DNA of 64,000 nt from Candidatus Peregrinibacteria bacterium. Lineage in GTDB: Bacteria > Patescibacteriota > Gracilibacteria > UBA1369 > PNNO01. Under the pieces are notes generated by a model, which was not told the origin of the DNA, did no database searches, and saw only the letters and a program-made list of their open reading frames with translations. Where the stretch lies: contig JAFGJT010000008.1 of NCBI GenBank assembly GCA_016928915.1, positions 1 through 64,000 of the forward strand, read 5' to 3'. The translations under genes were made by a program, and so were the position numbers. Positions 14,334 through 58,925 of this stretch are shown in pieces. Position 1 is the first letter of the stretch. The number at the start of each line of letters is the position of its first letter.

Positions 14334-14339
14334 ATACAT

Positions 14340-38797: not shown

Positions 38798-39145
38798 ATG
38801 TTCGACGAAAACAAAAATAAAGTTTTAATAGATAAGCTAAAAAATTTAGTAAAATTTGCCGAGTTTTTACCTGATTCACAGCGCAATGACTGGATTTTTA
38901 TGGCTGATTCTTTGTCTGAAAAAGATTTGAAAACAGCGTGCAGATATTTTGAAAAAGCCAACACAGACCTTTCTAATAAAAAACTTGAAATCGTATTTAA
39001 ATCGGGATTATCAAGCGAATATTTGGCACAAATTAAAAAACTTGCCGACGATTACAGAAAACAAACAACACACAAAGAAGAAATGCATCTACAAAAAACA
39101 TCAGAAAATCCTGAAGAGGTTTTAAAACAATTAAATGATTTATAA
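38798..39145 (+). CDS. Small helical protein, first gene of giant-protein locus 2; paralog of ORF 52746
   Basis: FAEFLPDSQRNDWIFMADSL... EEMHLQKTSENPEEVLKQLNDL aligns with SADYLNDIQKKEWLIICEKL... DEAYLSKTEEKPEEILNKLQNI. Extended -10 TGGTATAAT upstream (-10 at 38767-38772). Confidence 0.85.
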   Translation: MFDENKNKVLIDKLKNLVKFAEFLPDSQRNDWIFMADSLSEKDLKTACRYFEKANTDLSNKKLEIVFKSGLSSEYLAQIKKLADDYRKQTTHKEEMHLQKTSENPEEVLKQLNDL

Positions 39146-39147
39146 AT

Positions 39148-42100
39148 ATGTCGTTTGAACAAGCCAAATCGGATTTTGAAGCAAAAACAAAAGCAGCACC
39201 CGAATCAGTGGAGGGCGGCGAGCAGAATTTTGCGCGGTTCAGGGACAACACAAAGAACTATTTAATTCAAAAGAAAAACGAGGTGATTTCTTTTCATACC
39301 ACTTATCCCGGCAGCGAGGAGGATAAAGCAAAGTATTTAAAAGCCATGAATTCGGCTCTTGACCGGGTGCTGGATAAGGCGAGCGGAAAAGAAAAATACG
39401 ATGTTACCAAAAGTGAAATCGGCATATATAAAGCGGAGCTTTTAAAAAATTCCGTTGCATTCAAAAACAAACTGGAGCGAAAAACCGTTGAAAAAAAATT
39501 TCAGGAAACAATAAGTGTGCTTTTGCAAAATGGTTTAATGATTAATGTAAATCAGTTTATTGATGATTATCTTTCACTTCCAAAAGATAAAAGACTGCCC
39601 GTTAATCAGATAGAAAGCGAAATTAAAGGCCTTATGAATTCCGCAGATACACCCCGGCTGAAAACCGAACTTTTTATTAACAGCAAACTTACGTTTAAAG
39701 CATTAAACAATTTGGTAAAAGGAAATTTACACAATGCAAGAGAAGTAATAAAAAATATAAATCAAAAATTGGATCTTGTGCGAAGTTTAAAGGCCATAAA
39801 AAATCATACTGATTTAAAGAATTTAAGCGACGATACCCTTTATAACGTTTTAAATTCATTGATTCTTTCCGGTATCAAATATGAAAATGTAATAAATTAT
39901 TTTGTTAAAGGTATTGAAAAATTAAGAAAATTTGACAAGGAAAATTTTGACAACTGCATTAAAAACATGCCGTCCGAGGAGCTCGCGCTTTTTTTAAAAG
40001 CCGCCATCATACAGTCGGCAAATGATAATTCGCGAAATAATATTGACGGCATAAAGCTAACGTTAATGGTTGAAGGCGAACTGGCAAAAGCCAGAAATGA
40101 GAATATGGCCGGACTGCAAAAATCTTCAAAAGATCTTAATGCAATCAAAAAGTCTTATGATAAATACAAAAAAGAAAATCCAAACGTTGAAATGGATAAA
40201 AAAACAGCGGAATTTGAAAAAGATATCGCCCAAAAAAACTGGGATGCCGGCGTTTATAACCATAATTTGATTTTAACGCAGGCGAAACATACGCTGTGTA
40301 ATTTAATTTTATCAAACAGGAACACAAATCCATCGTCCCCGAAAACACAAAAATTGTTAAAAGATATTATTTTATCCAAAAATTTTGATGAGTTTAAAAA
40401 ATGTGCTTCTTTAAGCTCTTTTCCGCGACCGCCCGGTTTAAACGCTCTGCAGGCGGCAAGTCTGCAGATTGAAGTTTTGGATCACGAGAAAACGGTTAAA
40501 AAATGGATTTCGGATAATGAGGCCATTCAAGTTCGGTATCAGGTAACAAGCCGGCGTTTTGAAACCGCAAAGATTTTCCCTTTGGATGTTCATAAAAAAT
40601 TTATTGAAACCGGCACGCTTTCCGAAACGCAAATCGCGATTTTGGGCAATAAGTATCATATTCATTCGGAAACTTTAACAAATACATTAATCGGGCATTA
40701 TCAGGGTGAGTTTGAGGCTAATAATGAATTTAATAAATTTTCAAAAAATAATACAAGAACTATTAACCAGCTTTCCGAAAGAGAGCGTCTTGAGGCTTCA
40801 TCAAGCAGCCAGGGGTATCTTGATTTGTTAGGTGCAATGCACGGATCCTGTATCCAGATAATCTCTCAGCTTGAAAGTCTTTTAATCTTACAGCAAAAAG
40901 CAAAAAATCCGGATAATCCCATAAAGGAATTTACCGGTTTAAAACAGAAGATCCGGGATTATAAAGAAAAGGCCGCAGAATTAAGAAAGAAAGCGGAAAA
41001 TGTTGCAAAATTTTTAAATAAAAAAATTGAAGGTAATACTGATGATATTGATAGTCTTGCAGCTTCTCCTTTATACGGACCTCTTTTAAAAAATCGTATT
41101 CAGCCGTTTGTAAACAGAATGAAGGTAAAGGAAGCAGCGATACAAAACGCATACGCCCCCCTAACAAACATTGACCCTTATATTAAGGAACAGATTCGGA
41201 AAGACGCGCATCCGTCATTAATTTCGCACGGTTTTGAAAGGGGAATAAGATTAATTTCCAGTTTTGCCGAAGCTATGAAAGATGCCAGACAAGAAGCTAT
41301 ATCTGTAAAAAATGATTTGGAAATGATGATTAAAGATCCGCAGCTCCCCAAAAATATGCCCGCTTCGGTTAAGAAAATGTATATTCAGATGTTAAAAAAT
41401 AAAATTGCACAGATTGACGAAAATCTCACAAATTCCAAAAGTCCGATTAGTGTAAAATCAATACTAAGAGCGCGTAATGCCGCCGCATATATTGCCGCAA
41501 AGCAGCGTGAATACAATATGAAAAAATTTAAGCGCGGCATAGCGATTGCGGTTTGCATTGCGGCGGCCGGATTTGCGGCCTGGGGAGCCGGTCTTGGAAT
41601 GGCGGCCGCCGGAGGAAAACTTTTTGGAACAGTTGCCGCCGGAGGAGCCTTTACCCCGGGAGCAATCACGGTAAGCGCCGGAGCATCAAAACTTCTTGTT
41701 GGAGGGATGATGTTAACCGGATCATCGGCGGGCGGCGTAGTTGGCTCAAGGCTGATAATGACAGGTTTTGACTTGACCGGATTTTCTGATTTTGGAGGAA
41801 TGCGGAAGATATGGAATCCTAAAAAAATGGGAAAAGAATTTATAATATCTTTTGGTTTGTCTGTACTGATGGTTGGCGCGGCTCATGGCGTTCTGCGTGG
41901 AGCTTCGTTTACTTCAAAATCAACATATTTTAATAACAGGTTTCCGGGTTTTGCGAATTTTTCCAGAAATATTGTTGCCAAAAACAATCTGAATAAAATA
42001 TTGGCGGGGCAAACGCCGGTTCTTGGAGCCAGGCCGCCGCAAATAACGGAATCTATGAGAAAAACTTCAGAGCAACATCATAGACTGCGTTTATTTTGGC

Positions 42101-43098
42101 ATAATAAGTTTAACCATGCGGTAGACAGGCAAATACTTAAAAATCCAATTTTAACCAGGACTCAGGCTGAAAAGGCTGTTTTAAAAGATACCAAAAATTT
42201 ACTTTTAAAGGAGCGTGTAAAAACGCTTAATCTGCGAAATTTTAATCCAAAAACGCTTGATTTAAGAACGCCATCGCCACATATTCCCAGGCCCGCTTCT
42301 CGACCTGCACAGACAGCTGTTACACGAAGGGAGATCACCCCCAGGCCTGCGGCTGAACAAGGAACTGTTGTTTCCAAATCCACTGTTCCAAAAACTCAGC
42401 CTTTATTAAAGACCACTACAGCAGCTGAAAGAGAACGTTTATATTGGTACAACAAGCTGCAGCGCGATACAACCAGATATATTAATGAAAAGCGCATTAA
42501 AGATACACCAAGAAACAGGTTCAGGGCTGAAGAAGTAGTAATGAAAAATGACGCAATATTAAAAACCAAAGTTAATACGCTTAATATACGCGGATGGAAG
42601 CCCGATATCCCCAATATAAGAACAGCCACTCCTCGTGTGCCTCAGGCTGTTCCAGCGGCTGCAAGGCCTGCGCGAATAACTTCGCCTCAGGAATCAACGT
42701 TGGTGACACAAAAATCTGGAGTTCAACAACCCCGCGTGACGTCTCCGCAGGAGCCAACCGTGGTAAAGCCAAAAGAAGGATTCGCTGCGCCAAAACCCGC
42801 AGCAGCCGAAAGCGGGGCTCAGACGGTTGTTGGTAAAAAAGTACCCGTATCAGAAAGCGCCCCCCAACAAGCTCCGCGACCCGCCGCAGCTGAGACCTCT
42901 ATTGGCAAAGCGCCAAAATTCGCTTTGGCAAAATCTAAAACAAAAGAATTAGGTAAACAAACTACAGGCAAAGCTGTGCATGAAGCTGTTTCTCCTACGG
43001 ATGCTTCAAGTATAAATCCTGATGTTAAGCCGGCTCCGGCCGCAAGTGTCAACAGAAGAGCCGGTACGCAGGTCTCTAAAAGAAAAAAAGCAATTTAG
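39148..43098 (+). CDS. Giant uncharacterised protein, 1316 aa; paralog of ORF 53109
   Basis: MSFEQAKSDFEAKTKAAPESVEGGEQNFARFRDNTKNYL aligns with MPFQEAKKTFETKTEKAPAKVEGNWTSFKTDTKNYF; similarity extends through the Gly/Ala-rich membrane segment and FSDFGGMRKIWNPKKM / FADFGGYKKIWGAKEM. Confidence 0.9.
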   Translation: MSFEQAKSDFEAKTKAAPESVEGGEQNFARFRDNTKNYLIQKKNEVISFHTTYPGSEEDKAKYLKAMNSALDRVLDKASGKEKYDVTKSEIGIYKAELLKNSVAFKNKLERKTVEKKFQETISVLLQNGLMINVNQFIDDYLSLPKDKRLPVNQIESEIKGLMNSADTPRLKTELFINSKLTFKALNNLVKGNLHNAREVIKNINQKLDLVRSLKAIKNHTDLKNLSDDTLYNVLNSLILSGIKYENVINYFVKGIEKLRKFDKENFDNCIKNMPSEELALFLKAAIIQSANDNSRNNIDGIKLTLMVEGELAKARNENMAGLQKSSKDLNAIKKSYDKYKKENPNVEMDKKTAEFEKDIAQKNWDAGVYNHNLILTQAKHTLCNLILSNRNTNPSSPKTQKLLKDIILSKNFDEFKKCASLSSFPRPPGLNALQAASLQIEVLDHEKTVKKWISDNEAIQVRYQVTSRRFETAKIFPLDVHKKFIETGTLSETQIAILGNKYHIHSETLTNTLIGHYQGEFEANNEFNKFSKNNTRTINQLSERERLEASSSSQGYLDLLGAMHGSCIQIISQLESLLILQQKAKNPDNPIKEFTGLKQKIRDYKEKAAELRKKAENVAKFLNKKIEGNTDDIDSLAASPLYGPLLKNRIQPFVNRMKVKEAAIQNAYAPLTNIDPYIKEQIRKDAHPSLISHGFERGIRLISSFAEAMKDARQEAISVKNDLEMMIKDPQLPKNMPASVKKMYIQMLKNKIAQIDENLTNSKSPISVKSILRARNAAAYIAAKQREYNMKKFKRGIAIAVCIAAAGFAAWGAGLGMAAAGGKLFGTVAAGGAFTPGAITVSAGASKLLVGGMMLTGSSAGGVVGSRLIMTGFDLTGFSDFGGMRKIWNPKKMGKEFIISFGLSVLMVGAAHGVLRGASFTSKSTYFNNRFPGFANFSRNIVAKNNLNKILAGQTPVLGARPPQITESMRKTSEQHHRLRLFWHNKFNHAVDRQILKNPILTRTQAEKAVLKDTKNLLLKERVKTLNLRNFNPKTLDLRTPSPHIPRPASRPAQTAVTRREITPRPAAEQGTVVSKSTVPKTQPLLKTTTAAERERLYWYNKLQRDTTRYINEKRIKDTPRNRFRAEEVVMKNDAILKTKVNTLNIRGWKPDIPNIRTATPRVPQAVPAAARPARITSPQESTLVTQKSGVQQPRVTSPQEPTVVKPKEGFAAPKPAAAESGAQTVVGKKVPVSESAPQQAPRPAAAETSIGKAPKFALAKSKTKELGKQTTGKAVHEAVSPTDASSINPDVKPAPAASVNRRAGTQVSKRKKAI

Positions 43099-43165
43099 AT
43101 TTAAGTTAAAGCGTATTGACAAAACCATTTAAACGCTTATAATATAAAACCTATGTTTTTTCAAC

Positions 43166-43855
43166 ATGTCTGAAAAAGATCCCTCATCTTTGGAAAACAC
43201 AGAAATGTATATGAAATCCTGCGAGCAGTTAACCAATATGCAGGCCGCTCTTGAAGATATTTTAAAATTTGCTTTGGAAATTAAGGATTACCCTGAGGAT
43301 GATATAAAAAGAAGTGTTGTTTTGCTAGAAATCAACGATAAACTTAAAGAGGTAATGATTTGTTATCAGGGGCTTGATCCGGCTGTTTTTAATACGCATG
43401 AATGTTCGGTTTTTGAACTATTAAATTATCAGAATTGTAAAAATTTGTCGGATTTGATTTTAAAAATTTCAAAAGCTTTGGGAATTGTTGAATTTAACCT
43501 TGAAAAATCCATATTGCCAAAAAATTATTTACAGGAAGGGATATATATAAAAATTACCAACCTGCTGGAGTGTTTTATCACGCAGCCTTCTTTGGAGCGG
43601 CTTATTGAGCTTTATAAAAAATCGTTTTCATATCTTATGACGGATCCTTTGTGCAGCTCGAATGCCGAACAAAAACAGAGACTGGAGTTTTGCATTACTT
43701 TTAATAATAAATTAAGAGAACATATAATTGGAACCCTAAACGAAGGTCCTGCATTTTTAGATAATAATACTGCATATATCATACAGGCTTTTTGGCGGAC
43801 TTTTAAAGCTTTTTTTGGTAATTCCAAGAATCAGAGGCATTACGGAGCGGATTAA
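43166..43855 (+). CDS. Hypothetical protein downstream of the giant ORF (229 aa)
   Basis: Complete co-directional ORF, mainly helical, no recognised family. Confidence 0.65.
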   Translation: MSEKDPSSLENTEMYMKSCEQLTNMQAALEDILKFALEIKDYPEDDIKRSVVLLEINDKLKEVMICYQGLDPAVFNTHECSVFELLNYQNCKNLSDLILKISKALGIVEFNLEKSILPKNYLQEGIYIKITNLLECFITQPSLERLIELYKKSFSYLMTDPLCSSNAEQKQRLEFCITFNNKLREHIIGTLNEGPAFLDNNTAYIIQAFWRTFKAFFGNSKNQRHYGAD

Positions 43856-43928
43856 TGAAAATATTTAGCTTCGTTCCTTTTAATTAAAGCTTTTTTATGG
43901 TATAATATTAAGATTTAACGGAATATGC

Positions 43929-44840
43929 ATGACATACGCGGATGCAACTAAAAATAGCAAAAATGAGCCAATTGATGAATTTGCAAGTTTTGCCGATGAA
44001 TTGCGGGAGCATGTCGGAGGGCTTGATTCCGTTGATATATGGGGAAATCCGGTGGGTCAGGCTTCCGACAGTATTCAAAGCCGCGTGCAGGAAACAGTTG
44101 AAGCGTTAACTCAGGACAAGCTTGATGAAAAGAAATGGAATGAGTTTAAAGGTCTTTTAAAGATTTTTGCCGAGCTGGATTCCATGCTTGAAAAAAAGCC
44201 GGAAGAACTTGATATGGCAGTTTTACATTCAAAAATAAAAGAAATTGAAATAAACATGCAGGATAAAACATATATCATCAGCCATTCCGCGGTTGCCCCT
44301 ATAAGAAAATTTTTAGATTTTTTGCTTGAAGGAGGAAAAGAAAAATTGGAAAAATTCAAGCAGTATTTTCATCAGTTAATACATTTATTAAGCGCTCTTA
44401 TAAACGATCCCAATGTTCACGGGCGCATTGAAAGGCCTTTTGAGAAAGAGCTTATACATAATACTATGGAAGCTTTTAAAATTCCGGCCTGCCCGCCGAC
44501 CCTGCTTGCAAAGCTTTATAAAAAATATCAAAACAATCAGACAATAATTCCGCAGGATTTTAAGGATTACAATATAGAATTAAATAAAGAACTTGAGCCG
44601 GATTTTAATATTTTTTACGACCTTAAAAAGAGCCGTACAGAGCATTTTTCAAAAAATCCATATTCAAAGGAATATGCATACTGGAGCAGAATTTCGGAAG
44701 TTGAGATGTATAAAGAATTACTTCAGTGGAAAACGCTTCAGCTGCTGTTTGAATCCGCGGGTGAAAAAAAACTTCCGTTTGAATTTTTATCACATGTTTA
44801 TGATGCTTTGGCAGAGTATGAAAAAAATTCCGGTAATTAG
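43929..44840 (+). CDS. Hypothetical protein (303 aa)
   Basis: Complete ORF with extended -10 TGGTATAAT (43898-43906) upstream; no recognised family. Confidence 0.65.
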   Translation: MTYADATKNSKNEPIDEFASFADELREHVGGLDSVDIWGNPVGQASDSIQSRVQETVEALTQDKLDEKKWNEFKGLLKIFAELDSMLEKKPEELDMAVLHSKIKEIEINMQDKTYIISHSAVAPIRKFLDFLLEGGKEKLEKFKQYFHQLIHLLSALINDPNVHGRIERPFEKELIHNTMEAFKIPACPPTLLAKLYKKYQNNQTIIPQDFKDYNIELNKELEPDFNIFYDLKKSRTEHFSKNPYSKEYAYWSRISEVEMYKELLQWKTLQLLFESAGEKKLPFEFLSHVYDALAEYEKNSGN

Positions 44841-44859
44841 CATGCGGGGAAAATGCGGT

Positions 44860-46614
44860 TTACCAGCCGCTTCCGCCGCCGCCGCCAAAACCGCCGCCCG
44901 AAAAGCCGCCTGAAAATCCGCTTCCTCCGCTCCAGGCCGAAGACCCTCCGGAGCTTCTTGGCGATGCCGCAAAAGCGGTGTTTGCCTGCGACGTAAAGTG
45001 ATTCAGCCGGTCAACAAGATAAACCGTATTAAACGTGTCCATCTGCCCTTCAAACCACTTCGGCTGTTCTTTTATTATATCTTTAAACGCCTGCGCCCAT
45101 TTTTCGGAAAGGCCCAGAACCATCGCGTAAGGCAGGAGTTTTTCAAAGAAAAGATTTTCTTTTTCCTGGAATTTTATACGGTCTTTTTCGGCTGTTCGTA
45201 TATATTCTTCAAGGCCTTTTATATGTATGTAAGCATCCGCGCCCTTTAGGGTTTTTCGCGGCATAAATTTTGAGAAGATTATAAACAAAGCGCCTGAAAC
45301 CGGCAGCGTAATAGCAAAAGTCAGTCCCATAAACACCACTATCCCTCCCATGAGCATAAAAGAAATTACACACACAGCTATTCCTATTCCCAGATAAAGA
45401 CCTCTGATTTTTTCGGGATTTCCGCTAAAATATCCCCCTTTTGCAAGGTTTTCATAAATTTCTTCTTTGATTTTGGGGATATGTTTATAAAATTTTAATT
45501 TAAGGTCTGAAATTTTTACTGAATTTTTTTCCTCAAACACTCCGTCAAGAATTTTTATTTCGTGCGACTGAATATTTGCCGCGTTTTTATAATCTTTTAA
45601 AAGCTCCAGTTCATAATCCGTTGAATCAAAAAACATCATTTTTTTTTCTTTTATTTCTTTGATTTTAATAAATCCTTTTACCGCAAAGTCAATTATTACG
45701 GTTGTTATGTCATGGATATCAACTTTTTCATCAATTATCGTGCCGACCTCGGTTGCCGTTAGGCCTTTGGGAGCGGTATATTGCGGAATAATAGTGTCTT
45801 TTGTTTTGGGGTCGCGGCCCGTATACCACCATTTTAGAAAAAGAAAAATGAATACAAAAACAGGTATCAGCAAACTCCAGTTGTCAAAAATGAACCATAA
45901 AATCTGCTGGAGCGCGTTTGGCGGTTCAACAATGCCTTTTGAAAAGCCCGCCACAATCGTAAATCCTTCAAAAGCGCCAAGCTCTGTTTGGGATTTGTAT
46001 TCATAAGTTTTTTCATCAATAATTTTTGCCGTACAGTCGGAGGCTGTCGAGTAATAAGCTCCCGTAAAACATGCCGCGCGCTGGTCTTGAGTTTTTGAAG
46101 ATGCGGGAAGTATAACCGTTGCCGAGCTTTCAACAACCGGAACGTCCCACTTGGTAAACAAGTTCCAGTATATTTCGTCATGTTCGGGAAAAAATCCCAC
46201 CGCGCGTGTTACTTCGTAAGTAATAACATAGGTAGTAATTTTATTTAAATAAACATCCGGATCACCGATTTTAATAAAATAATTGTCCCAGTCTTCAAAA
46301 TCCCGTCCCTGATCCGCTATCGGGTGAGGTTTGCCGTTTTCGTCTTTTACGCTTAATAATTTAAATCTTAAATTAAAAGGATTGCCGTATTTATCGCGGT
46401 AATTGGTAGGTATTGTTCTTATTATTCCGCGGTGCGGATCATCGGAGAAATCAGCGACAACGGTTTCTTCCACATGCAGCGTGCCGTTTTCAAAAATTTC
46501 AATTTTCTGATCGAAATTTTTTATATACCACGGTGTATAGGCAAATACTGCCTGCGATAAAAACAGCGCTGCAGTAAGGGCAATTAAGCCTGCAGAAAAT
46601 ATCCTTTTTTTCAT
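44860..46614 (-). CDS. DUF2207 membrane protein with Gly/Ser-rich C-terminus
   Basis: Signal peptide, YIKNFDQKIEIFENGTLHVEETVVADFSDDPHRGIIRTIP (DUF2207 start), TM segments, terminal GGSGFSGGFSGGGFGGGGGSGW. Confidence 0.9.
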   Translation of the reverse strand: MKKRIFSAGLIALTAALFLSQAVFAYTPWYIKNFDQKIEIFENGTLHVEETVVADFSDDPHRGIIRTIPTNYRDKYGNPFNLRFKLLSVKDENGKPHPIADQGRDFEDWDNYFIKIGDPDVYLNKITTYVITYEVTRAVGFFPEHDEIYWNLFTKWDVPVVESSATVILPASSKTQDQRAACFTGAYYSTASDCTAKIIDEKTYEYKSQTELGAFEGFTIVAGFSKGIVEPPNALQQILWFIFDNWSLLIPVFVFIFLFLKWWYTGRDPKTKDTIIPQYTAPKGLTATEVGTIIDEKVDIHDITTVIIDFAVKGFIKIKEIKEKKMMFFDSTDYELELLKDYKNAANIQSHEIKILDGVFEEKNSVKISDLKLKFYKHIPKIKEEIYENLAKGGYFSGNPEKIRGLYLGIGIAVCVISFMLMGGIVVFMGLTFAITLPVSGALFIIFSKFMPRKTLKGADAYIHIKGLEEYIRTAEKDRIKFQEKENLFFEKLLPYAMVLGLSEKWAQAFKDIIKEQPKWFEGQMDTFNTVYLVDRLNHFTSQANTAFAASPRSSGGSSAWSGGSGFSGGFSGGGFGGGGGSGW

Positions 46615-46641
46615 AGAGATTTTTGTAAAGGGCCTGATAGA

Positions 46642-47211
46642 TTATTTTTTTTCCTCGTCGGAAAAACTTACTTTAACATTCTGTTTTTCCTCTTCTCCAA
46701 TCTCAAAGAACTGTCTGTCTTTAAAACCAAGCATCCCTGCAATTATATTGTTCGGGAAAACCTGAAGTTTTGTGTTGAAATCGCGGACAGTCCCGTTGTA
46801 GTAGCGGCGTGACATCTGAATATGCTCCTCGATTTCCTTTAAGGTCTGCTGAAGGTGCATAAAGTTTTCATTTGCCTTAAGTTCGGGATAATTTTCAGCT
46901 ACCGCAAATAAAGTTTTTAATGTTCCGGTAAGCACATTCTCAGCCTGCGCTTTTTCTTCCGGAGTCTTTGCGTTCATAGCCATATTTCTGGCCTGGGTAA
47001 CCGCTTCAAAGGTTTTTGATTCGTGTTTTGCATAACCCTTTACAGCCTCGACCATATTAGGGATAAGGTCGTATCTTCGTTTTAGCTGCGTGTCAATATC
47101 GGACCATCCTTCGTCAACTTTGTTTTTAAGAACAATCAGCCCGTTGTACACACTGATCGCAAAAACCGCAACCACAGCCACAATCGCTAACAATACCAAT
47201 AAAACATCCAT
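46642..47211 (-). CDS. LemA family protein
   Basis: YNGLIVLKNKVDEGWSDIDTQLKRRYDLIPNMVEAVKGYAKHESKTFEAVTQARN, classic LemA. Confidence 0.95.
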   Translation of the reverse strand: MDVLLVLLAIVAVVAVFAISVYNGLIVLKNKVDEGWSDIDTQLKRRYDLIPNMVEAVKGYAKHESKTFEAVTQARNMAMNAKTPEEKAQAENVLTGTLKTLFAVAENYPELKANENFMHLQQTLKEIEEHIQMSRRYYNGTVRDFNTKLQVFPNNIIAGMLGFKDRQFFEIGEEEKQNVKVSFSDEEKK

Positions 47212-47297
47212 ATATTTTTTGTTAATTAATAATACGGTGTTATTTTACTATTATTTTGGCAATTTGAAAGAAAAAAAGGCATGCCGGATAGACACAT

Positions 47298-49913: not shown

Positions 49914-49992
49914 GTTGATATATTAAATCGGCCGGACCATTTTTCCTAATTTAAATTATTCAATAAACTTTATATACGTCCATAGGATATTT

Positions 49993-50021: not shown

Positions 50022-50027
50022 GATTTG

Positions 50028-50434
50028 AAACTTAGGTTTTGGAAACAAAAATTCAAACAAAAAAGTTCTTTAAAAAATTAAAAACAAAAAGAGATAAAGA
50101 AAGATGAGGGGGAGAAATAAAAACAAAAGCGCCAAAAACAATTGCGCATTGCATGTTCCCCTTCTCTCCTTCTTTAGCTCGACGATGACCCGGTAAGATG
50201 ACTTCTTGCCCCGTCGACCCATAAGTTGTCCGGTGGTTTCCATCTCGTCTAAAGACAGATGCAGGAACCACGTAAACGGACGGTCCGTGGCTGGACTGGA
50301 AAAATCAGCCGAAGTATGAGCCAAAAGAATTGAGTGAAAGTCGCACTCCCAAAAACAAAAATAAATCTTGAACTGCAAACAAAAACAAACCGCAGTCCAT
50401 AAGATTTCTGCCCCCCTTTACGGGGGGTTTTTTT
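50028..50434 (+). ncRNA. Candidate structured non-coding RNA, family not recognised
   Basis: Consensus promoter, no credible + strand ORF, multiple paired stems (TCGACG/CGTCGA with GGTAAGA/TCTTGCC; GTCCG/CGGAC with GTGGTTTCC/GGAACCAC; AAATCTT/AAGATTT with ACTGC/GCAGT), then an intrinsic terminator. Confidence 0.7.
50411..50434 (+). terminator. Rho-independent terminator of the ncRNA gene
   Basis: CCCCCC-tttac-GGGGGG-TTTTTTT. Confidence 0.9.
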
Positions 50435-50483
50435 GTGCATCAAAATCTGCTATTCTTTTTAAAGAATTTAATTCTTTGAACAT

Positions 50484-51074
50484 ATGCTTGAAGGAATAGA
50501 ATGGGCAACAATGATTGTGGGATGGACCATAATGTTTATTGTGTTATTTATTACAAAATACAAGACCGTTAAAGTGGGAGGGGGGATACAGAGTATAAGT
50601 ACGGAAAAAATGCAAAAAGAGACAATGATTGCAAATATTATTTTTATTTTGTATTTTTTTGCAGCCGGATTGATCGCACATATTGTTGTTTTTCCGGATT
50701 TTGTTCAGTATGAATTTCTTGCGCATTATTTTCATTATTTTCTGGGAGTTTTTATTTTCGCCATTGCGATATGGCTTTATATATACGCAAGAATAACCCT
50801 TGGCAGCAACTGGTCATGGAAAGGCGAACTGCTGAGGGACAAAACAAAATTGATTACATGCGGTCCTTATTGTGTAATACGGCATCCCACGTATACCGCG
50901 TTTATTCTTGCCGGATTTGCGAGTGGCGTCACGGTAGCGATTACAAGAATTCTGTTTTTTATGATTTTAATGCTGCCAATAATATATTGGCGCGCAAAAG
51001 TTGACGAGAAACATTTAAAAGCGCTTTTCCCGGAATATAAGGAATATATGAAAAGGACAAGAATGTTTTTTTAG
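50484..51074 (+). CDS. Isoprenylcysteine carboxyl methyltransferase (ICMT)-family membrane methyltransferase
   Basis: TM helices, ARITLGSNWSWKGELLRDKTKLITCGPYCVIRHPTYTAFILAGFASG (RHPxY motif), KVDEKHLKALFPEYKEYMKRT. Confidence 0.85.
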   Translation: MLEGIEWATMIVGWTIMFIVLFITKYKTVKVGGGIQSISTEKMQKETMIANIIFILYFFAAGLIAHIVVFPDFVQYEFLAHYFHYFLGVFIFAIAIWLYIYARITLGSNWSWKGELLRDKTKLITCGPYCVIRHPTYTAFILAGFASGVTVAITRILFFMILMLPIIYWRAKVDEKHLKALFPEYKEYMKRTRMFF

Positions 51075-51076
51075 CA

Positions 51077-51120
51077 GACCCCGCTCTGGCGGGGTCCCTC
51101 CCCGCATTCTTTTTTAGAGC
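51077..51120. terminator. Intrinsic terminator between convergent genes
   Basis: GACCCCGC-tctg-GCGGGGTC, T-tract following. Confidence 0.75.
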
Positions 51121-52196
51121 ATCTTCGTAAACTCATCAAACAAATACCCCGTATCATTCGGGCCCGGGGTTGCTTCGGGATGAAACTGAACGGCAAAGAA
51201 TGGTAAGGATTTATGGCGGATGCCTTCAACCGTTTTATCGTTGGCATTTATAAAAAGCGGCTTCCATTCGCGCGGAAGCGATTTGGCGTTGATGGCAAAA
51301 CCGTGGTTTTGCGAAGTTATATAGCACCTGTTGTTTTCAAGGTTGGTGCACGGCTGATTCTGCGCTCTGTGCCCGTATTTTAATTTGTAGGTTTTTGCAC
51401 CCGCGGCAATGGCCATTATCTGATTGCCAAGGCAAATTCCGAATGTGGGGATTTTTGCGGCAAAACATTTTTGCACAATTTCGTGCGTTTCGTGTAAAAT
51501 CGCGGGATCTCCGGGTCCGTTGGAAATAAACACTCCGTCGAATTTAATTTTATTCTTGAAAATATCATAGTTCCACGGAACGCGCGTAACCGTAATATCG
51601 CGTGAAAGTAGGCTTCTAAGTATGTTGTTTTTCATGCCGCAGTCAATAAGAGCGATTCGTTTTTTGCCGCGGTTGTAAACGATGGGTTTTTTGATGCTTA
51701 CATTTGCGACAAGATTTTCGTTGTTGGGGTCGTAAAATTTTTCGGATTTTTTTGATGTTTTTTCATCCGTAAAAACGATTTTTCCGAGCATAACTCCGTG
51801 GTCTCTTAATTTTTGTGTCAGTGCGCGTGTGTCAATTCCTGCCAAAGCTGCAATTTTGTTTTCTTTAAGCCAGCTTGCAAGTGTGCGAGAGGAGTTCCAG
51901 TGACTCGGTTTTTCGCAAAGTTCACTCACAATTAGTCCTTTAATATGAATTTTATCGCTTTCAAAATGCTTGCTGATTTTAAACTTGTCTTTTTCATCAT
52001 CCGGAACGCCGTAATTTCCGATTAACGGGTATGTTAAAGTTAAAATCTGTCCTTCGTAAGACGGATCCGTAAAACTTTCGGGATAACCCATCATTCCCGT
52101 ATTAAAAACAACCTCCCCCTCGGACATTTTATCCGCCCCGACAGAAATACCCTCTAAGATGGTGCCGTCCTCAAGGATGAGGTATCCTTTTTTCAT
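51114..52196 (-). CDS. carA: Carbamoyl-phosphate synthase small subunit
   Basis: GYLILEDGTILEGISVG, VFNTGMMGYPESFTDPSYEGQILTLTYPLIGNYG, PTFGICLGNQIMAIAAGAKTYKLKYGHRAQNQP, VQFHPEATPGPNDT. Confidence 0.97.
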   Translation of the reverse strand: MKKGYLILEDGTILEGISVGADKMSEGEVVFNTGMMGYPESFTDPSYEGQILTLTYPLIGNYGVPDDEKDKFKISKHFESDKIHIKGLIVSELCEKPSHWNSSRTLASWLKENKIAALAGIDTRALTQKLRDHGVMLGKIVFTDEKTSKKSEKFYDPNNENLVANVSIKKPIVYNRGKKRIALIDCGMKNNILRSLLSRDITVTRVPWNYDIFKNKIKFDGVFISNGPGDPAILHETHEIVQKCFAAKIPTFGICLGNQIMAIAAGAKTYKLKYGHRAQNQPCTNLENNRCYITSQNHGFAINAKSLPREWKPLFINANDKTVEGIRHKSLPFFAVQFHPEATPGPNDTGYLFDEFTKML

Positions 52197-52270
52197 TAAA
52201 ATTTCATTAAAATTTTCGCTTATTTCTTATACGATTTTACATATTTTAAAACGATAAAGCCAGAGAGAGT

Positions 52271-52606
52271 TTAACGTCTGAAAATAAAGTATTTAAGGCA
52301 AGTATCTATTTTGTCGTTAATCTGTTTTTTAATGCTTTTTAAGGCATCCGAAGCAGTGTTTATCACTGCTTCTGCAAGCTGAACCATGGCGGCCAGTCCC
52401 ACGCCAAAGCTTTCATCATTCAGCGAATCATCATCATCGTCATCATTTTTTGTTGAAAGCCTGTTAATTACATCTTCCCCCAATCTGCGGAATCGCGGGG
52501 TTTCAACCGAATTTTCGGTAGTTTTCTGGCGCGGATTTCGTCTTTTCCATTCATCCAAAGATATTAGATTTTCATCCTCGATACTGTCGGTATTTTTTGG
52601 CTCCAT
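52271..52606 (-). CDS. Hypothetical protein with acidic run
   Basis: MEPKNTDSIEDENLISLDEWKRRNPRQK...NDDDDDDSLND..., from the likely start at 52606; no family. Confidence 0.5.
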   Translation of the reverse strand: MEPKNTDSIEDENLISLDEWKRRNPRQKTTENSVETPRFRRLGEDVINRLSTKNDDDDDDSLNDESFGVGLAAMVQLAEAVINTASDALKSIKKQINDKIDTCLKYFIFRR

Positions 52607-52745
52607 GCATATTAAATTTAATTTACGCATTAATATTAACACAATTTATAAATTGGTCAATTTGCCAGAGAGCGTGAATCCTCCGTTCATCTCTTTAAAT
52701 AAACAAAATTTTATGATATAATATTTAGATTAAATAAAAAAATAA

Positions 52746-53105
52746 ATGACGTTAAAGGCGATATCAAAACCAACAAAAAGCAAAACAAAAGATGATTTAA
52801 TAAAACTGATTAAATCAGCCGATTATTTGAATGATATTCAGAAAAAAGAATGGCTGATAATTTGTGAAAAATTGGATATATCTCAACATAAACTTCTTTA
52901 TGACGCTTTTATCAATGCTGAAAATGAGGAAAAAGATTTTAAATTAAAATTAATTTTTAAATACAATTTAGCAGATACTTATAAATCAAAAATAAAAGAG
53001 ATTTCCGCAAAATATCAGATACAGTCAAGAAAAAAAGATGAAGCATATTTAAGTAAAACGGAAGAAAAACCCGAAGAAATATTAAATAAACTTCAAAATA
53101 TATAA
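52746..53105 (+). CDS. Small helical protein, first gene of giant-protein locus 3; paralog of ORF 38798
   Basis: Aligns along most of its length with ORF 38798; TATAAT at 52715-52720 upstream. Confidence 0.85.
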   Translation: MTLKAISKPTKSKTKDDLIKLIKSADYLNDIQKKEWLIICEKLDISQHKLLYDAFINAENEEKDFKLKLIFKYNLADTYKSKIKEISAKYQIQSRKKDEAYLSKTEEKPEEILNKLQNI

Positions 53106-53108
53106 ATT

Positions 53109-56100
53109 ATGCCTTTTCAGGAAGCAAAAAAAACATTTGAAACAAAAACAGAAAAAGCTCCCGCAAAAGTTGAAGGGAATTGGACCTCTTTTAAAACCGA
53201 TACAAAGAACTATTTTGATAAAAAACAACAAGAAGTAGCGGATTATATAGATAAAACAAATTATCCGGATAAAAATAAAGATAAATCCGATTATCTTTCG
53301 GCAATGAAAACTGCAATTGACGACGTAATTGACGGAAATGAAGCAACAAAGAATGAAATAGCACAATATAAAAGCACACTGCGTTCAAAATCCGAGAAAC
53401 TCAAACAGAAATTTGCAGCGGAATATGAGCGGCAAGTTGTGGAGAGCGAATTTAAAAAAACCGACAAAATTTTTTCCGGGTTTGGATTTAAGATAAATGT
53501 AAAAGATAATGCAAAGACGTATCTTTCGGTGGCCAAAGATCAAAGAATACCCGTTAAGGAGATTACACAATGGATGCAGAATATATCTTCCAAAATCACT
53601 TCTCCCGAATTAAAAAAGGCATTAGTTGCTAATAAAAACACTATTTACACAATATTCAATCATTTATGCTGGGGCAATAAAACCGCGGCGGAAAACGAAA
53701 CAAAGCCGCTCCTTGAAACCCTTAAATTTTTAAATTCCGCAGCAGAAATAAAAGAAAAAACGGGGATAAAGAATATTCATAATGTAGATTTAATCAGGGT
53801 TTTATATGCTCTTGAAAAAACCGGGGTAAAAAAGGAACGGGTTATTGATTATTTTATTGATGGTGTAGCTAAATTAAGGCAAACCGACAAAGATTCTTTT
53901 GAAACAATTCTTAAGGGTAATGATTCAAAAGATCTGGCCGCCTTTTTACTTGCATCCATTATTGCAATAAAAGAAGGTAAAACATCTCGGTCTTTAGAGG
54001 GGATTAAGCTTACAATGCAAATTGAGTCCGCAACATTAAAAGAAAAATCAGAGTTAAAAAGTAAATCCAATGCGGTATCTAAAATGCTGGTAGAACAGAT
54101 ATGGGAGTTGCATGGTGTTGAATTTCAAGGTTTAAAAGTTGAAAAAAAGACTAAGACGGAAGCAGACAGAACAAGGCTGGAAAAAGAAATTGCGCATTCC
54201 AATTACAGCCTTGTGCATTACAGAAAAGACATTATTCTTGCGGAGGTTAAACAGGCTTTTGCAAATACTTATATAAATAAAAAAGGTGTTAATCCGGTTC
54301 TTAAGCGGACAAAAGAAGTTATTAACGAAATTTTAACCGCCAAAGACGGTGATAAATTAAAGATATTGTCTTTACAGCATAAAATAGCATTGCCGCCTCA
54401 AAACGGCCTTTTAACAGCCTGTGAAATTGAAACTGAGATTGCCGAAAAGGATTATAATATTAAAAAATGGCAGGACAGCGAAGATGTGCGCAGGATACTG
54501 TCGGGTTATTATAAAAACGGTAAACTTGATTCCGATTCAAAGAATGTTTTAAAGCTTCAGCTTAAGTACAGGGCCGAAGAGATGATGATGCTGATAGAAA
54601 ACAAAAAAACAAATATTGAAGAGGCTGTTTCAAATACAAAAGCAATATTTTCAAAATATCCGACAATTAAAAATATTCCGCCAAACCAGCGGCAGGTAAT
54701 TATTCAGCAGCTTATAGGGAATATGCTTGTATTAAAAAATATTCATAATGCGAGCGTTCAGCTTGTGAGCAACAGCCAGGCGTATGCCATGCTTTTGCCT
54801 GAGGGTAAAGAAAAACAGGACATATTAAAGAAAACAGCCGGATATAAAAAAGAAGCAAACAGTTACGGGGCGGAAATTAATAAAATTGCAGTTTATCTGG
54901 GGCATAAAGAAGATAAAAATTTAACCGATGTTGATAATTTGGCCGCCGATCCGATTTTAACGCCGATGCTGCAAAGGGAAATGGCGCCGCATTTAAAACC
55001 AATCAATGAAAATTTTCAAAGCATTGTTAATATGTTTGAGCCGATTTCAAATATCGGGAAAACAATAGACGCCCAGATGAAGCAATATCCCGGCCTTGTC
55101 AGCCACAGCTTTGAACAGGGAATTGCAATGCTGGACAACTGTGCAAGTAAAATGGTGGCGGGAAGGTATTCTATAGTAAAAACTATACAAACTTTAACCG
55201 ATGAAGCAAATAAGGGTTCAGCCGATAAAACCAATATGCCGGAATTTTTTAGAATTCAGAGAAATAAATATATTAAGCAGTTGGCGGCTAATTTGACCGC
55301 TTTGTTAAATAAACCGCCGTACAGTACGGAGGCAATTAAAAATATGCGTTCTCAAAGGGAGAAAATAGCTAAACAATATAGTAAATATATTAAATACGGT
55401 TTTCTAAAAGGGGTGGTGATAGCGGCAATTTTTGCTGCAGCCGTTGCTACGGCGGTTGGCGGGGGCTGGGCTTTGGGAGCTTTAGGTGGAAAGCTGATGG
55501 CGAGCGGAATGGCCGCCGGAGCTCTGACATCAAAGATTGCGGTTGGAGGTATGGCTTTGGTTGGTGCCTCTGCGGGCGGGGTGCTGGGCGCCAGAGGAGC
55601 AATGTCCGGACTCCAGGCTTTGGATTTCGCGGATTTCGGGGGGTACAAAAAAATATGGGGCGCAAAAGAGATGTGGAAAGATTTTTCCAAAGGATATTTA
55701 TTATCAATAGCTACGGTCGGGACTGCCAATGCATTGGTAAAATCTTTAAGCTGGGCCGGAAGGCGCGAAGGCTATGTTGCGTTAAGATGGCCGGGATTGG
55801 CAAAACATTCACGGCATGCATTGGCGAAACTTGAAAATGTCGCAAAATTTGCAGATCCCGCTACATGGTTTAAAGGAGGTGAGGGCGGAGAAGCGGCAAC
55901 CAGACAGGCTTTTTTAAAGCAGTTTGCAAATGAGGCAAAACAGGAAATTGCACAGGAAACTTTTGAAGAAACTGCGGAAAAAGCAAATCCGGTACTGGGA
56001 TTTTTAGTATCAGTTGCAGGATCATTGAAATCCCCCAAAGGTAAACTCGCCATACATGGATTACGCCCTAAAAAAATCGGAATATCAATTGAAGGAGACA

Positions 56101-58925
56101 GTATGGTATTTACAACAAAAACACCTCAGGAATTTGTTGCAAACTTTAATAAAGAAAATATCGGGCAGCCCGGACTTGATTACAAACTGGAAATAAATCC
56201 TGACAATTCGGTTACTTTAACATTAAATTCGGAAGGGAAATGGTCGGTTATAGATATAAATCCGGCTATGCAGTCCAGCAATTTAACGCCGGAAATTGAA
56301 ATTGCACGGGTTCCGGGACTTTTGCCTGTGAATATCACAGCCGGCAAATATAAAGTTAAAAATCCCGAACAGGGTATGGCCGCGCTTGCAGATTTTTATA
56401 ACCGCGGCTTTAACATTGTTAAAACCGATACAGGAACAATAAAGGTGTCCAAAGGCGATAAATCAATAGAAATTCAGATGTCTGCCGAAACAATGACGCA
56501 GATGAACATTAACAGTGATGCCGCTCTTACAACCCAGGTTAAAAAAAGGTCGGTTTTGCAGTATTTAAGAGATAATGCGGCAAAAATAAAACAATATTTT
56601 TCTAAATTGCAAATAAGGCGGGCATTTGAAGAATATGTAAATAAATGGAAGGGAAATTATGCAAAATTTCTTGAGAATAATCCAAGGCTTGCAAAACTGA
56701 TGCCCAAAGATTTACAGCAAGTCGCGCTTCTCGGCATGGCGGTTATTTCATCCGCTATCGGAGTGCCTCTTGCTTTAGGGCTTGTTCAGAGAACGCAGGA
56801 TTTTGAATATTCCGAGGGGCAAAGATTATATGTCAGATTAGCTCCCGGTGATTTTAGATATCTTGATGTCAGATATACGGATCCTGCGAATAAGCTAGTA
56901 TATGTTTATGACTGGACATATAAAGGCGAGGTTCCTTATTATATGGAATCTCTAAATCAAGCAATGGCACAACAGGCACAAGACCAGCAAACTGCGCAGG
57001 ATTTAGCAATGAGACTAAAAAAAATCGGGATGGATGATATAGCTCTGGATATAGCCAGTTTAGAAAATGACACAATTAAATCCGAAGTTTTAGAACAAGG
57101 CACGCCCCCTATTTTGACAATTGATGAAAGAAAATTGTGGGTTGAATATTTTGAACAAGCACATAAAGAAATTACCGATATTGCTCAAGAAATGCATAGA
57201 TATGGATATAAACAAGAAGCTTCTTCTTTAATGAATTATAATGACCGTTCAAGATATCCAAATGTTCAAACCAGACTGGATGATGGGAGATTATATATGA
57301 CAAATATTAATGATATGGTGAAAAAATTAGGATTAGAAAAAATTGATTATCAAATACAAAATACTAGAAAAATATTAGAAATTTTAAGAGATAATTTTGT
57401 TATTAAATTTATTAAAGAACTCTCCGTAAAATTCAACAATAATATAAATAATATGAAGTTGTGGGCAAAAAAAAATTGGGATAAGTTAGTTTTAAAATTT
57501 AGAGGTTTGTTAAGTTTGTCGGCGGTTGAAAAATTAGTATCAAACGAAGCTGTTAACTTGGAATTAAATGAATATAAAACTCTTTCTGAAAATACAGCTT
57601 TGGAATCTCAAGATGCATATGAAGCAAGTCTTGATAAAGTCTTGGAAGCATTAAAAGGCCAGAACGGTATTGTCCAATTAAGAAAAGATATTCCGACAAT
57701 ACTTGTTCAGGACTTGCATGGCAGAAGGGAAGCATTGGTTCATATACTTTTACAGAAAGGACCCGATGGAAGAACCAATTTAGAGAAAATGCAGAATGGT
57801 GAATTGCAAATTGTATTAATGGGGGATGCTATGCATGTTGAAGGAAGTGCAAAGGACAGATGGCAAAAAGCTCAAAATGATATGTTTGATAATAAACCTT
57901 CGCAAGCTATGACACAAGAAATGGTTGATTCATTAAATACAATGAAAATTGTAATGGATTTAACAGCAAAATACCCAAATGCTTTTTATTATTTAAAAGG
58001 TAATCATGATAATATTGATGGTCGTTCATCGGGAGGAGACAGTCCATTTGAGAAATACAATGTTATGATTTCACATTGTGTTAAACACTGGATTGTACAG
58101 AATTATGGACAAGAATTTCTTAGTAAGTGGGCACAATTTGAAAAAAACCTTCCACTATTAGCAATAGGAAATAATTTTGTTGCATCACATTCGGAACCCG
58201 GGAATACAGGTCAGGGTGGGAAGAATGCATATGAAATACGTTCATTAAATGAAATTGCAAATCGTGATGCCGATGCGGTATGGGCTCTTACATGGTCAAG
58301 AACCGAGCAGGGTGGGAATCAGGCAAGGAGGGTTTTAGAATTAGCTGGTCTTGATCCTTCAACAGCACATTATATCGTAGGTCACACTCATACAGATGGT
58401 AAATATGAAAAAGTAGCTAATCGTGTTATTCGTATAAATAATCATGATGAGGTTCATTATGGTATTATACCCTCCAATGGTCTTTTTAATCCGGATCTGC
58501 ATATTTATAAGGCTGAAAAACCTTCTGCGCCGGATGTAAAAAATACTCCCACAGTCACTCCGCAGGATCAAGCCAGCCTGTCTAAAGTATTGGAAAATTA
58601 TGAATATAATTTATCCGAAAATACTTATATAGATATTTCAAATCCGCAAGGTATTGTTGAGTTAAAATTACAAGATTTTCCTTTACATATAAGCCCAAAT
58701 TCCCAATACGGCTTTATGATAACCAATCCAAATGATCCGGCAAACCAATTTCAAGCTTTAAGGGACGGAGAGACTGTTGTTTTAGGTCGTGAAAATCCAG
58801 GTAGATTCAATTTCCCCGAAACCGTTTCAAGGCCACATATACAAATAACCAGGCAGGGAGATAATATTCAAGTGAGAAATATAAGCACTTTTGGCAGCAC
58901 TATCAGATATGCACAGGAAAAATAA
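53109..58925 (+). CDS. Giant multidomain protein, 1938 aa: locus-2-like N-half, Gly/Ala membrane segment, calcineurin-like metallophosphatase and C-terminal FHA-like domain
   Basis: N-half paralogous to ORF 39148; C-half IPTILVQDLHGRREALVHIL, VLMGDAMHVEG, FYYLKGNHDNID, VASHSEPGN, YIVGHTHTDG; final VVLGRENPGRFNFPETVSRPHIQITRQGDNIQVRNISTFGSTIRY. Confidence 0.9.
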   Translation: MPFQEAKKTFETKTEKAPAKVEGNWTSFKTDTKNYFDKKQQEVADYIDKTNYPDKNKDKSDYLSAMKTAIDDVIDGNEATKNEIAQYKSTLRSKSEKLKQKFAAEYERQVVESEFKKTDKIFSGFGFKINVKDNAKTYLSVAKDQRIPVKEITQWMQNISSKITSPELKKALVANKNTIYTIFNHLCWGNKTAAENETKPLLETLKFLNSAAEIKEKTGIKNIHNVDLIRVLYALEKTGVKKERVIDYFIDGVAKLRQTDKDSFETILKGNDSKDLAAFLLASIIAIKEGKTSRSLEGIKLTMQIESATLKEKSELKSKSNAVSKMLVEQIWELHGVEFQGLKVEKKTKTEADRTRLEKEIAHSNYSLVHYRKDIILAEVKQAFANTYINKKGVNPVLKRTKEVINEILTAKDGDKLKILSLQHKIALPPQNGLLTACEIETEIAEKDYNIKKWQDSEDVRRILSGYYKNGKLDSDSKNVLKLQLKYRAEEMMMLIENKKTNIEEAVSNTKAIFSKYPTIKNIPPNQRQVIIQQLIGNMLVLKNIHNASVQLVSNSQAYAMLLPEGKEKQDILKKTAGYKKEANSYGAEINKIAVYLGHKEDKNLTDVDNLAADPILTPMLQREMAPHLKPINENFQSIVNMFEPISNIGKTIDAQMKQYPGLVSHSFEQGIAMLDNCASKMVAGRYSIVKTIQTLTDEANKGSADKTNMPEFFRIQRNKYIKQLAANLTALLNKPPYSTEAIKNMRSQREKIAKQYSKYIKYGFLKGVVIAAIFAAAVATAVGGGWALGALGGKLMASGMAAGALTSKIAVGGMALVGASAGGVLGARGAMSGLQALDFADFGGYKKIWGAKEMWKDFSKGYLLSIATVGTANALVKSLSWAGRREGYVALRWPGLAKHSRHALAKLENVAKFADPATWFKGGEGGEAATRQAFLKQFANEAKQEIAQETFEETAEKANPVLGFLVSVAGSLKSPKGKLAIHGLRPKKIGISIEGDSMVFTTKTPQEFVANFNKENIGQPGLDYKLEINPDNSVTLTLNSEGKWSVIDINPAMQSSNLTPEIEIARVPGLLPVNITAGKYKVKNPEQGMAALADFYNRGFNIVKTDTGTIKVSKGDKSIEIQMSAETMTQMNINSDAALTTQVKKRSVLQYLRDNAAKIKQYFSKLQIRRAFEEYVNKWKGNYAKFLENNPRLAKLMPKDLQQVALLGMAVISSAIGVPLALGLVQRTQDFEYSEGQRLYVRLAPGDFRYLDVRYTDPANKLVYVYDWTYKGEVPYYMESLNQAMAQQAQDQQTAQDLAMRLKKIGMDDIALDIASLENDTIKSEVLEQGTPPILTIDERKLWVEYFEQAHKEITDIAQEMHRYGYKQEASSLMNYNDRSRYPNVQTRLDDGRLYMTNINDMVKKLGLEKIDYQIQNTRKILEILRDNFVIKFIKELSVKFNNNINNMKLWAKKNWDKLVLKFRGLLSLSAVEKLVSNEAVNLELNEYKTLSENTALESQDAYEASLDKVLEALKGQNGIVQLRKDIPTILVQDLHGRREALVHILLQKGPDGRTNLEKMQNGELQIVLMGDAMHVEGSAKDRWQKAQNDMFDNKPSQAMTQEMVDSLNTMKIVMDLTAKYPNAFYYLKGNHDNIDGRSSGGDSPFEKYNVMISHCVKHWIVQNYGQEFLSKWAQFEKNLPLLAIGNNFVASHSEPGNTGQGGKNAYEIRSLNEIANRDADAVWALTWSRTEQGGNQARRVLELAGLDPSTAHYIVGHTHTDGKYEKVANRVIRINNHDEVHYGIIPSNGLFNPDLHIYKAEKPSAPDVKNTPTVTPQDQASLSKVLENYEYNLSENTYIDISNPQGIVELKLQDFPLHISPNSQYGFMITNPNDPANQFQALRDGETVVLGRENPGRFNFPETVSRPHIQITRQGDNIQVRNISTFGSTIRYAQEK

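What the first reader, a model, noticed from the sequence alone, without database searches (positions are those of the whole stretch)
38798..58925. Duplicated two-gene cassette: ~115 aa helical protein followed by a 1.3-1.9k-residue membrane/coiled-coil protein
ORF pairs 38798+39148 and 52746+53109 are paralogous for both partners. Small partners: EFLPDSQRNDWIFMADSL...KPEEx... pattern, both ending PEE(V/I)L(K/N)xL. Giants: (S/P)F(E/Q)xAK..FE(A/T)KT..AP..VEG...NY(L/F) at the N-terminus and a shared Gly/Ala-rich segment followed by DFGGxxKIW. The small and giant genes are separated by only 2-3 bp, so a co-translated, functionally coupled pair is likely. I recognise no named family for either partner.
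Basis: partly seen in the sequence, partly recalled or inferred. Interest (0 to 1): 0.88.

Follow-up and report, generated by a model that had tools for sequence, protein, structure and literature searches.

The report
Adaptor gene leading polymorphic giant proteins
In Peregrinibacteria (tiny, mostly uncultured bacteria), a ~110-residue helical protein gene sits directly in front of very large, mix-and-match proteins whose tail ends carry swapped enzyme domains, which looks like a previously undescribed adaptor-plus-cargo system, possibly for delivering effectors to other cells.

Summary
The duplicated cassette is real. S1/S2 are homologous (33%, E 4e-16), G1/G2 over ~945 N-terminal residues (31%, E 1e-110), with 2 and 3 bp between small and giant gene. 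It is also part of something larger. The organism is a Ca. Peregrinibacterium. In its order (89 genomes), 43 of 46 stand-alone S-type genes examined are followed within -15..+40 nt by a same-strand ORF of at least 180 aa (median 1147 aa; 31 of 33 in the subset fetched on S alone, against 19 of 78 for other small ORFs). A third, divergent pair (10142-14333) lies in the same window. In the closest family the cargo is modular: S-coupled N-domain, helical region, Gly/Ala-rich membrane segment, conserved junction, then a swapped C-terminus. Cargo tails across the order include GGDEF, HD, PPP phosphatase, FHA, calpain, transglutaminase and NlpC/P60. G2 ends in a PPP-like phosphatase with all metal ligands; the convergent gene after it recurs only beside the one close relative of that domain. 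Best reading: S is a co-translated adaptor for polymorphic, probably exported, effectors. It resembles LXG/Lap toxins, but no T7SS ATPase was found. Interaction, export and toxicity are untested.

The parts
38798..39145 (+). S1, small adaptor-like helical protein, 115 aa, C-terminal NPEEVLKQLNDL
   Evidence: Homologous to S2 and to the order-wide S family; 2 bp before G1
39148..43098 (+). G1, giant cargo, 1316 aa: N-domain, helical region, membrane segment, DFGGMRKIW; no enzymatic tail, instead a repeated ~70 aa helical/proline unit and a Pro/Ala/Lys-rich tail
   Evidence: Homologous to G2 over residues 1-945; no junction module; repeat read directly from the translation
39148..39522 (+). G1 N-domain (aa 1-125), present in every family giant that has an S gene and an intact N-terminus
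41533..41898 (+). G1 hydrophobic, Gly/Ala-rich segments (aa 796-917), DFGGMRKIW at 41788-41814
   Evidence: Hydropathy scan, alignments
52746..53105 (+). S2, small adaptor-like helical protein, 119 aa, C-terminal KPEEILNKLQNI
   Evidence: AlphaFold2 all-helical, mean pLDDT 79
53109..58925 (+). G2, giant cargo, 1938 aa
53109..53483 (+). G2 N-domain (aa 1-125)
55386..55688 (+). G2 Gly/Ala-rich hydrophobic segment (about aa 760-860) including DFGGYKKIW (55632-55658)
56076..56483 (+). G2 predicted alpha/beta domain (about aa 990-1125)
   Evidence: AlphaFold2 secondary structure (moderate confidence); conserved in alignment A3
56562..56822 (+). G2 junction module (aa 1152-1238), the conserved linker before the swapped tail
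   Evidence: Profile hits in 7 giants of the family, E 6e-32 to 8e-38 (those sequences built the profile)
57621..58508 (+). G2 PPP-like metallophosphatase domain (about aa 1505-1800): DLHG...GDAMH...GNHDN...SH...GHTH
   Evidence: 56% identity to L096 with the ligand positions of all motifs conserved; 41 of 42 weak PDB profile hits are PPP-type Ser/Thr phosphatases or similar; the relative L067 passes Pfam PF00149
58626..58913 (+). G2 FHA-like region (about aa 1840-1935), below the family threshold
   Evidence: PF00498 E 0.06, sub-threshold; GR...VSRPH motif; direct comparison with the L024 FHA inconclusive
58930..59337 (-). Convergent 135 aa gene, candidate cognate (immunity or regulatory) partner of the G2 phosphatase tail
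   Evidence: Homologue in exactly 2 of 89 genomes, the same two that hold this phosphatase domain, same convergent position
10142..10444 (+). s0, divergent S-family protein, 100 aa
   Evidence: 43% identical to L043 S (E 2e-22); S profile E 5e-4 against best of 500 shuffles 0.018
10449..14333 (+). Giant 'a' (1294 aa) led by s0, 4 bp gap; unrelated in sequence to G1/G2
   Evidence: same arrangement in L043 and L044

Best explanation
S is a dedicated adaptor or chaperone, made just before and coupled to the translation of its giant, that binds the giant's N-terminal domain. The giant is a modular, polymorphic effector: N-domain, helical region, Gly/Ala-rich membrane hairpin, alpha/beta domain, junction, and an exchangeable C-terminal tail (in G2 a PPP-like phosphatase plus an FHA-like region; in G1 no enzyme). 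The giants have no recognisable N-terminal signal peptide, and I infer that S and its C-terminal (E)xILxxLxx motif deliver them to an export or membrane-insertion machine, so that the tail acts outside the cell or in a contacted cell. A tail-specific neighbouring gene (58930-59337 for G2) would protect the producer or regulate the tail. Shown here: gene linkage, modularity, tail swapping, ligand conservation. Inferred: binding, export, targets, immunity.
For: Linkage: 43 of 46 stand-alone S genes lead a larger gene within -15..+40 nt; 31 of 33 in the subset fetched on S alone against 19 of 78 controls, Fisher p 3e-12. S follows the N-domain: L037 and L038 keep the N-domain (E 9e-11, 2e-6), S and junction although the middle of the protein is unrelated. 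At the syntenic alaS/miaB/eno locus of another family, S-led giants (L070; L071 beside eno) have an N-terminus that S-less ones (L020, L021) lack. Tail swapping: L018 and L038 share GGDEF (45%) and junction (53%) but not the core; the G2 phosphatase is 56% identical to that of a genome of another family. Cargo Pfam domains: GGDEF, HD, PPP, FHA, calpain, transglutaminase, NlpC/P60, weak peptidoglycan-binding. The 58930-59337 gene tracks the phosphatase, 2 of 2 in 89 genomes. C-terminal S motif in 31 of 45 S against 44 of 467 other ORFs, p 1e-18. Precedent for small helical targeting factors with polymorphic toxins: PMC9600955.
Against: No exporter is identified; the own genome has only one clear FtsK/SpoIIIE ATPase (766 aa), so no EssC. 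Family genomes have an ordinary GGDEF protein of their own, so GGDEF tails could act internally. The 58930-59337 co-occurrence rests on two genomes. Some cargo is small (249-350 aa) and one follower is an ordinary-looking Nudix gene (L162). G1 has no enzymatic tail. A housekeeping-like S relative of about 125-200 aa exists class-wide without giants, so the S domain is not exclusively a cargo leader. No physical evidence exists.
Confidence: 0.5

Rival explanations
1. Intracellular membrane signalling hubs. The giants stay in the producer's membrane, the helical N-part senses or scaffolds, and the C-terminal GGDEF, HD, PPP or FHA domain is the output; S is a stable regulatory subunit.
For: GGDEF motif residues are intact in L018/L016/L038; these genomes have other GGDEF proteins and, except G000, Hanks-type kinases; no signal peptide; membrane segment; 1-2 copies per genome in the family.
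Against: Cargo also carries NlpC/P60, calpain and weak peptidoglycan-binding hits, which make little sense as internal outputs. Genomes with PPP-tail giants (G000, G069, G082, G088) have no protein kinase above cut-off, 0 of 4 against 6 of 6 others, p 0.005 but confounded by taxonomy and completeness.
Confidence: 0.27
2. Surface or cell-wall scaffold proteins. The giants build the cell surface or attachment structures, S is an assembly factor, and tail domains process the wall or act locally.
For: Giant membrane proteins are proposed to build the fibrous surface of the related CPR bacterium Vampirococcus (PMC8080830); Ca. Peregrinibacteria are enriched in huge proteins (PMC11573180); weak peptidoglycan-binding hits in several cargo proteins; the S relative lies near a sortase-like gene in several genomes (assigned by eye).
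Against: No repeat-rich adhesin architecture or sorting signal was recognised in G1/G2; GGDEF, HD, PPP and FHA tails do not fit a structural role; the tails are exchanged.
Confidence: 0.16
3. S and the giant are merely neighbours in an operon and S has an independent role like the class-wide S relative.
For: S homologues exist without a giant (the housekeeping-like copy, L040, L157); the f1 and f14 N-domains are not detectably homologous to each other.
Against: 43 of 46 linkage across many genera and unrelated giants, with gaps or overlaps of a few bases; tandem duplicated S before one giant (L018); S retained when the giant's core is replaced.
Confidence: 0.07

Closest known systems
T7SSb LXG toxins with Lap1/Lap2 (DUF3130/DUF3958) targeting factors (PMC9600955)
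   Same: Small all-helical protein encoded with a large toxin that has a conserved helical N-part and a variable C-terminal effector; glycine-zipper segments are known in LXG toxins (TelE, PMC10434224)
   Different: No LXG or DUF3130/3958 match, no structural hit of S to WXG100 proteins, no EssC ATPase found, much larger cargo with a different core
Polymorphic toxin systems (PMC3482391)
   Same: Conserved N-part, junction before the tail, exchanged C-terminal domains, candidate cognate downstream gene for one tail
   Different: None of the known trafficking or pretoxin domains recognised; immunity and toxicity not shown; several tails (GGDEF, HD, FHA) are signalling domains
PPP-family metallophosphatases (PF00149; PP1/PP5-like)
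   Same: Metal-ligand motif positions (DxH, GD, GNH, H, GH) conserved in G2 and L096
   Different: Sub-threshold for Pfam, the DRG of GDxxDRG is replaced (GDAMHVEG), placed at the end of a membrane giant
Giant membrane proteins of Vampirococcus and other CPR (PMC8080830)
   Same: Very large predicted membrane proteins in a related CPR clade
   Different: No S-type leader gene or C-terminal polymorphism is described in the passages read

Membership tests
T7SSb LXG/Lap effector system | EssC-type FtsK/SpoIIIE ATPase in the genome | tested here: not met
   Own genome: one clear PF01580 protein of 766 aa, as expected for FtsK, plus one sub-threshold fragment (assembly 95.6% complete)
T7SSb LXG/Lap effector system | LXG (PF04740) or DUF3130/DUF3958 domain | tested here: not met
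   Pfam scans of S, the giants and 31 cargo proteins returned none
T7SSb LXG/Lap effector system | Partner with WXG100-like helical hairpin fold | tested here: inconclusive
   S2 model is all-helical with two long helices, but no PDB match with E <= 0.001
Polymorphic toxin system | Conserved N-terminal part with exchanged C-terminal effector domains | tested here: met
Polymorphic toxin system | Known trafficking or pretoxin domain | tested here: not met
   No such Pfam/NCBIfam family in G1, G2 or relatives
Polymorphic toxin system | Downstream immunity gene specific to the C-terminal domain | tested here: inconclusive
   58930-59337 homologue tracks the phosphatase tail in 2 of 2 genomes; GGDEF giants in G003/G005/G006 share a 176-180 aa follower; protection not testable
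Polymorphic toxin system | Toxicity of the C-terminal domain | not testable with these tools
   Needs expression
PPP metallophosphatase | Metal-ligand motifs DxH, GD, GNH, H, H | tested here: met
   All present in G2 and conserved in L096
PPP metallophosphatase | Passes the curated Pfam threshold (PF00149) | tested here: not met
   G2 and L096: no hit; related giant L067 passes, E 4e-11
FHA domain | Passes the curated Pfam threshold (PF00498) | tested here: not met
   G2 E 0.06; giant L024 passes, E 1e-8

The most novel reading that the evidence does not exclude
Peregrinibacteria possess a dedicated, previously undescribed effector-delivery pathway whose universal targeting adaptor is the S family, recruited from a class-wide housekeeping protein, and whose substrates are giant polymorphic proteins with exchangeable catalytic tails and tail-specific cognate genes.
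Probability: 0.35. Interest if true: 0.88.

Novelty: new variant of a known kind. Interest (0 to 1): 0.76.

Why it matters
CPR bacteria are thought to live on or off other cells, but how Peregrinibacteria act on partners is largely unknown, and their many huge proteins are essentially unannotated (PMC11573180). A single small marker gene that leads these proteins gives a handle to find and classify them across an order, a testable adaptor hypothesis, and a list of candidate effectors (phosphatase, calpain, NlpC/P60, transglutaminase, GGDEF) for work in model bacteria.

Tried and rejected
Genome-contig scan with G1 alone found nothing; alignments A3 and A4 were too divergent for that scan; viral contigs hold no relative of the G2 phosphatase. 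PDB fold searches of the S2 and G2-core models gave nothing significant, so a fold-based function was dropped; PDB sequence search of S gave only an implausible odorant-binding-protein hit. Weak Pfam hits of S1 (XendoU, Nup120 HEAT) and G2 (Ig-like_KY) are sub-threshold and were not used. A T7SSb system was considered and rejected for lack of EssC and LXG. Anti-phage defence: only scattered weak PADLOC hits. Homology of the f1 and f14 N-domains was tested and not found. A first ORF clean-up hid the S gene of L073 behind an antisense ORF and was corrected. The phosphatase alignment began too late and was redone.
Full report
Observation. S1 and S2 align over 104 residues at 33% (E 4e-16) and G1 and G2 over ~945 residues at 31% (E about 1e-110); the rest of the giants is unrelated. 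Spacing is 2 and 3 bp. The host genome (1.13 Mb, 20 contigs, 95.6% complete) holds only these two full copies.

Organism. Scanning named genomes with the GGDEF tails of relatives returned contigs matching the unnamed relatives by length: WJKT01000066 'Candidatus Peregrinibacteria' (G006), PNNO01000002 (G003), JAGGUZ010000006 (G005) and JAHJMX010000117 'Patescibacteria group' (G001). The window is therefore taken to be from a Peregrinibacteria-type CPR genome; its own name is not given.

Relatives of the giant. The core profile hits 18 of 89 genomes of the order and none outside it among 380 genomes sampled from the phylum. In the family the small gene always leads the giant: G000 twice, G001 (two tandem S genes), G003, G004, G005, and G006, where the S gene is frameshifted at a contig end; in G002 the giant runs off the contig. 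The G2 locus is syntenic with G001 (dinG, methyltransferase, carA, then S-giant), and in G010 a related giant also lies beside pyrC/pyrB/carA (gene names assigned by eye).

S family. S proteins of another family of the order (f14) are homologous to those of f1 (hhalign probability 95%, E 2e-8; most exceed shuffled decoys). A combined profile (A10) hits 84 of 89 genomes. Two kinds exist: a single-copy relative of about 125-250 aa found class-wide in housekeeping surroundings (beside greA or a sortase-like gene), and stand-alone ~100-130 aa genes leading a larger gene, which I found only in the order. Of 45 stand-alone S genes tabulated, 43 are followed within -15..+40 nt on the same strand by an ORF of at least 180 aa, 34 of at least 500 and 23 of at least 1000 aa (median 1147); other ORFs of 85-135 aa in the same loci do so in 19 of 78 cases. 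Twelve of the 45 were found through a giant or in the family search; in the 33 fetched by S alone the figure is 31 (Fisher p 3e-12 against controls). L040 adds one exception. The C-terminal motif (E..ILxxL) is present in 31 of 45 S and 44 of 467 other ORFs (p 1e-18). The S2 model is all-helical (mean pLDDT 79) with no significant PDB match.

Modularity. In the family an ~85-residue junction module occurs in all seven giants that reach that far, whatever the core, and is missing in G1. L037 and L038 share only the N-domain (first ~125 residues), S and junction with the other family members; their middle is different. L018 and L038 share a GGDEF tail (45%) and junction (53%) but not the core. 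In f14 the S-led giants share their own N-domain type, not detectably homologous to that of f1, while S-less giants at the same alaS/miaB/eno locus (L020, L021) have another N-terminus. I infer that S pairs with the N-domain. Binding was not tested.

Tails. G2 carries a PPP-like phosphatase (aa ~1505-1800) with all metal-ligand motifs, 56% identical to a domain in G088, a genome of another family, against ~25-30% for giant cores. The profile of the two weakly hits PP1/PP5-type structures (best E 0.025); a more typical PPP tail is in L067 (PF00149 E 4e-11). An FHA-like stretch follows, below threshold. Elsewhere in the cargo set: GGDEF, HD, FHA, calpain, transglutaminase, NlpC/P60, metallophosphatase and weak peptidoglycan-binding hits, and by eye HExxH-like motifs (L024, L037, L038, L067, L070) and an ART-like LHHGT motif (L022), unconfirmed.

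Cognate gene. The 135 aa gene converging on G2 (58930-59337) has one homologue in 89 genomes, in G088, next to the related phosphatase and in the same orientation. This is suggestive of an immunity or regulatory partner but rests on two cases. GGDEF-tailed giants of genus g4 share a 176-180 aa follower, within one genus only.

Mechanism. Best reading: S is a co-translated adaptor for polymorphic, membrane-active or exported giants. For export: no signal peptide is apparent, S-led cargo includes NlpC/P60, calpain and peptidoglycan-binding-like domains, tails are exchanged, and genomes with PPP-tailed giants lack a kinase above cut-off (0 of 4 against 6 of 6; p 0.005, confounded by taxonomy and by an incomplete G088). 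Against: no exporter was identified, and the genomes have GGDEF signalling of their own. The LXG/Lap system (PMC9600955) is the closest analogue; membership fails on EssC and LXG. A T4SS reported across Patescibacteria (PMC12102498) is a possible route, untested here.

Limits. ORFs are mechanical calls on draft MAGs, several cut at contig ends. Short helical proteins invite compositional similarity; shuffles, synteny and linkage were used as controls. Hydropathy calls are simple Kyte-Doolittle scans. The low GC3 of S2 (0.18), the G2 tail (0.25) and the 58930-59337 gene (0.26) against neighbours (0.35-0.46) fits rapid or lateral evolution but is not proof.

Noticed in passing
10142-22921: Cluster of s0, giant 'a' (1294 aa) and three more large proteins (741, 804, 1291 aa) without Pfam hits; the 741 and 804 aa proteins are paralogues (31%) and the 1291 aa one shares the N-terminal ~110 aa of the 804 aa one. 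Conserved in L043/L044.
   Followed up: partly
L040:7188-7538 (own genome C9): Stand-alone S-family gene directly after a type IV pseudopilin-like gene, with no large gene downstream.
   Followed up: no
L041:7225-7818, L163:10892-11362, L164:1279-1692: Housekeeping-like S relative lies beside or near a sortase-like gene in several genomes, and beside greA in other families of the class (L167, L169).
   Followed up: partly
L023:5668-6375, L069:4485-5105: Some f14 giants without a typical S gene are instead preceded by a 206-235 aa gene beginning MGDGP, possibly an alternative partner family.
   Followed up: no
L022:4101-5036: C-terminus of the HD-tailed giant has an LHHGT motif that resembles ADP-ribosyltransferases by eye; no Pfam support.
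   Followed up: partly
L142, L143, L154: Small S-led cargo (249-304 aa) with beta-rich, barrel-like C-termini by eye, two of them ending in phenylalanine, unusual for a supposedly single-membrane lineage.
   Followed up: no
1632-9391: Cell-surface cluster: SLH protein, penicillin-binding protein, GH18 glycosidase with SLH domains.
   Followed up: no
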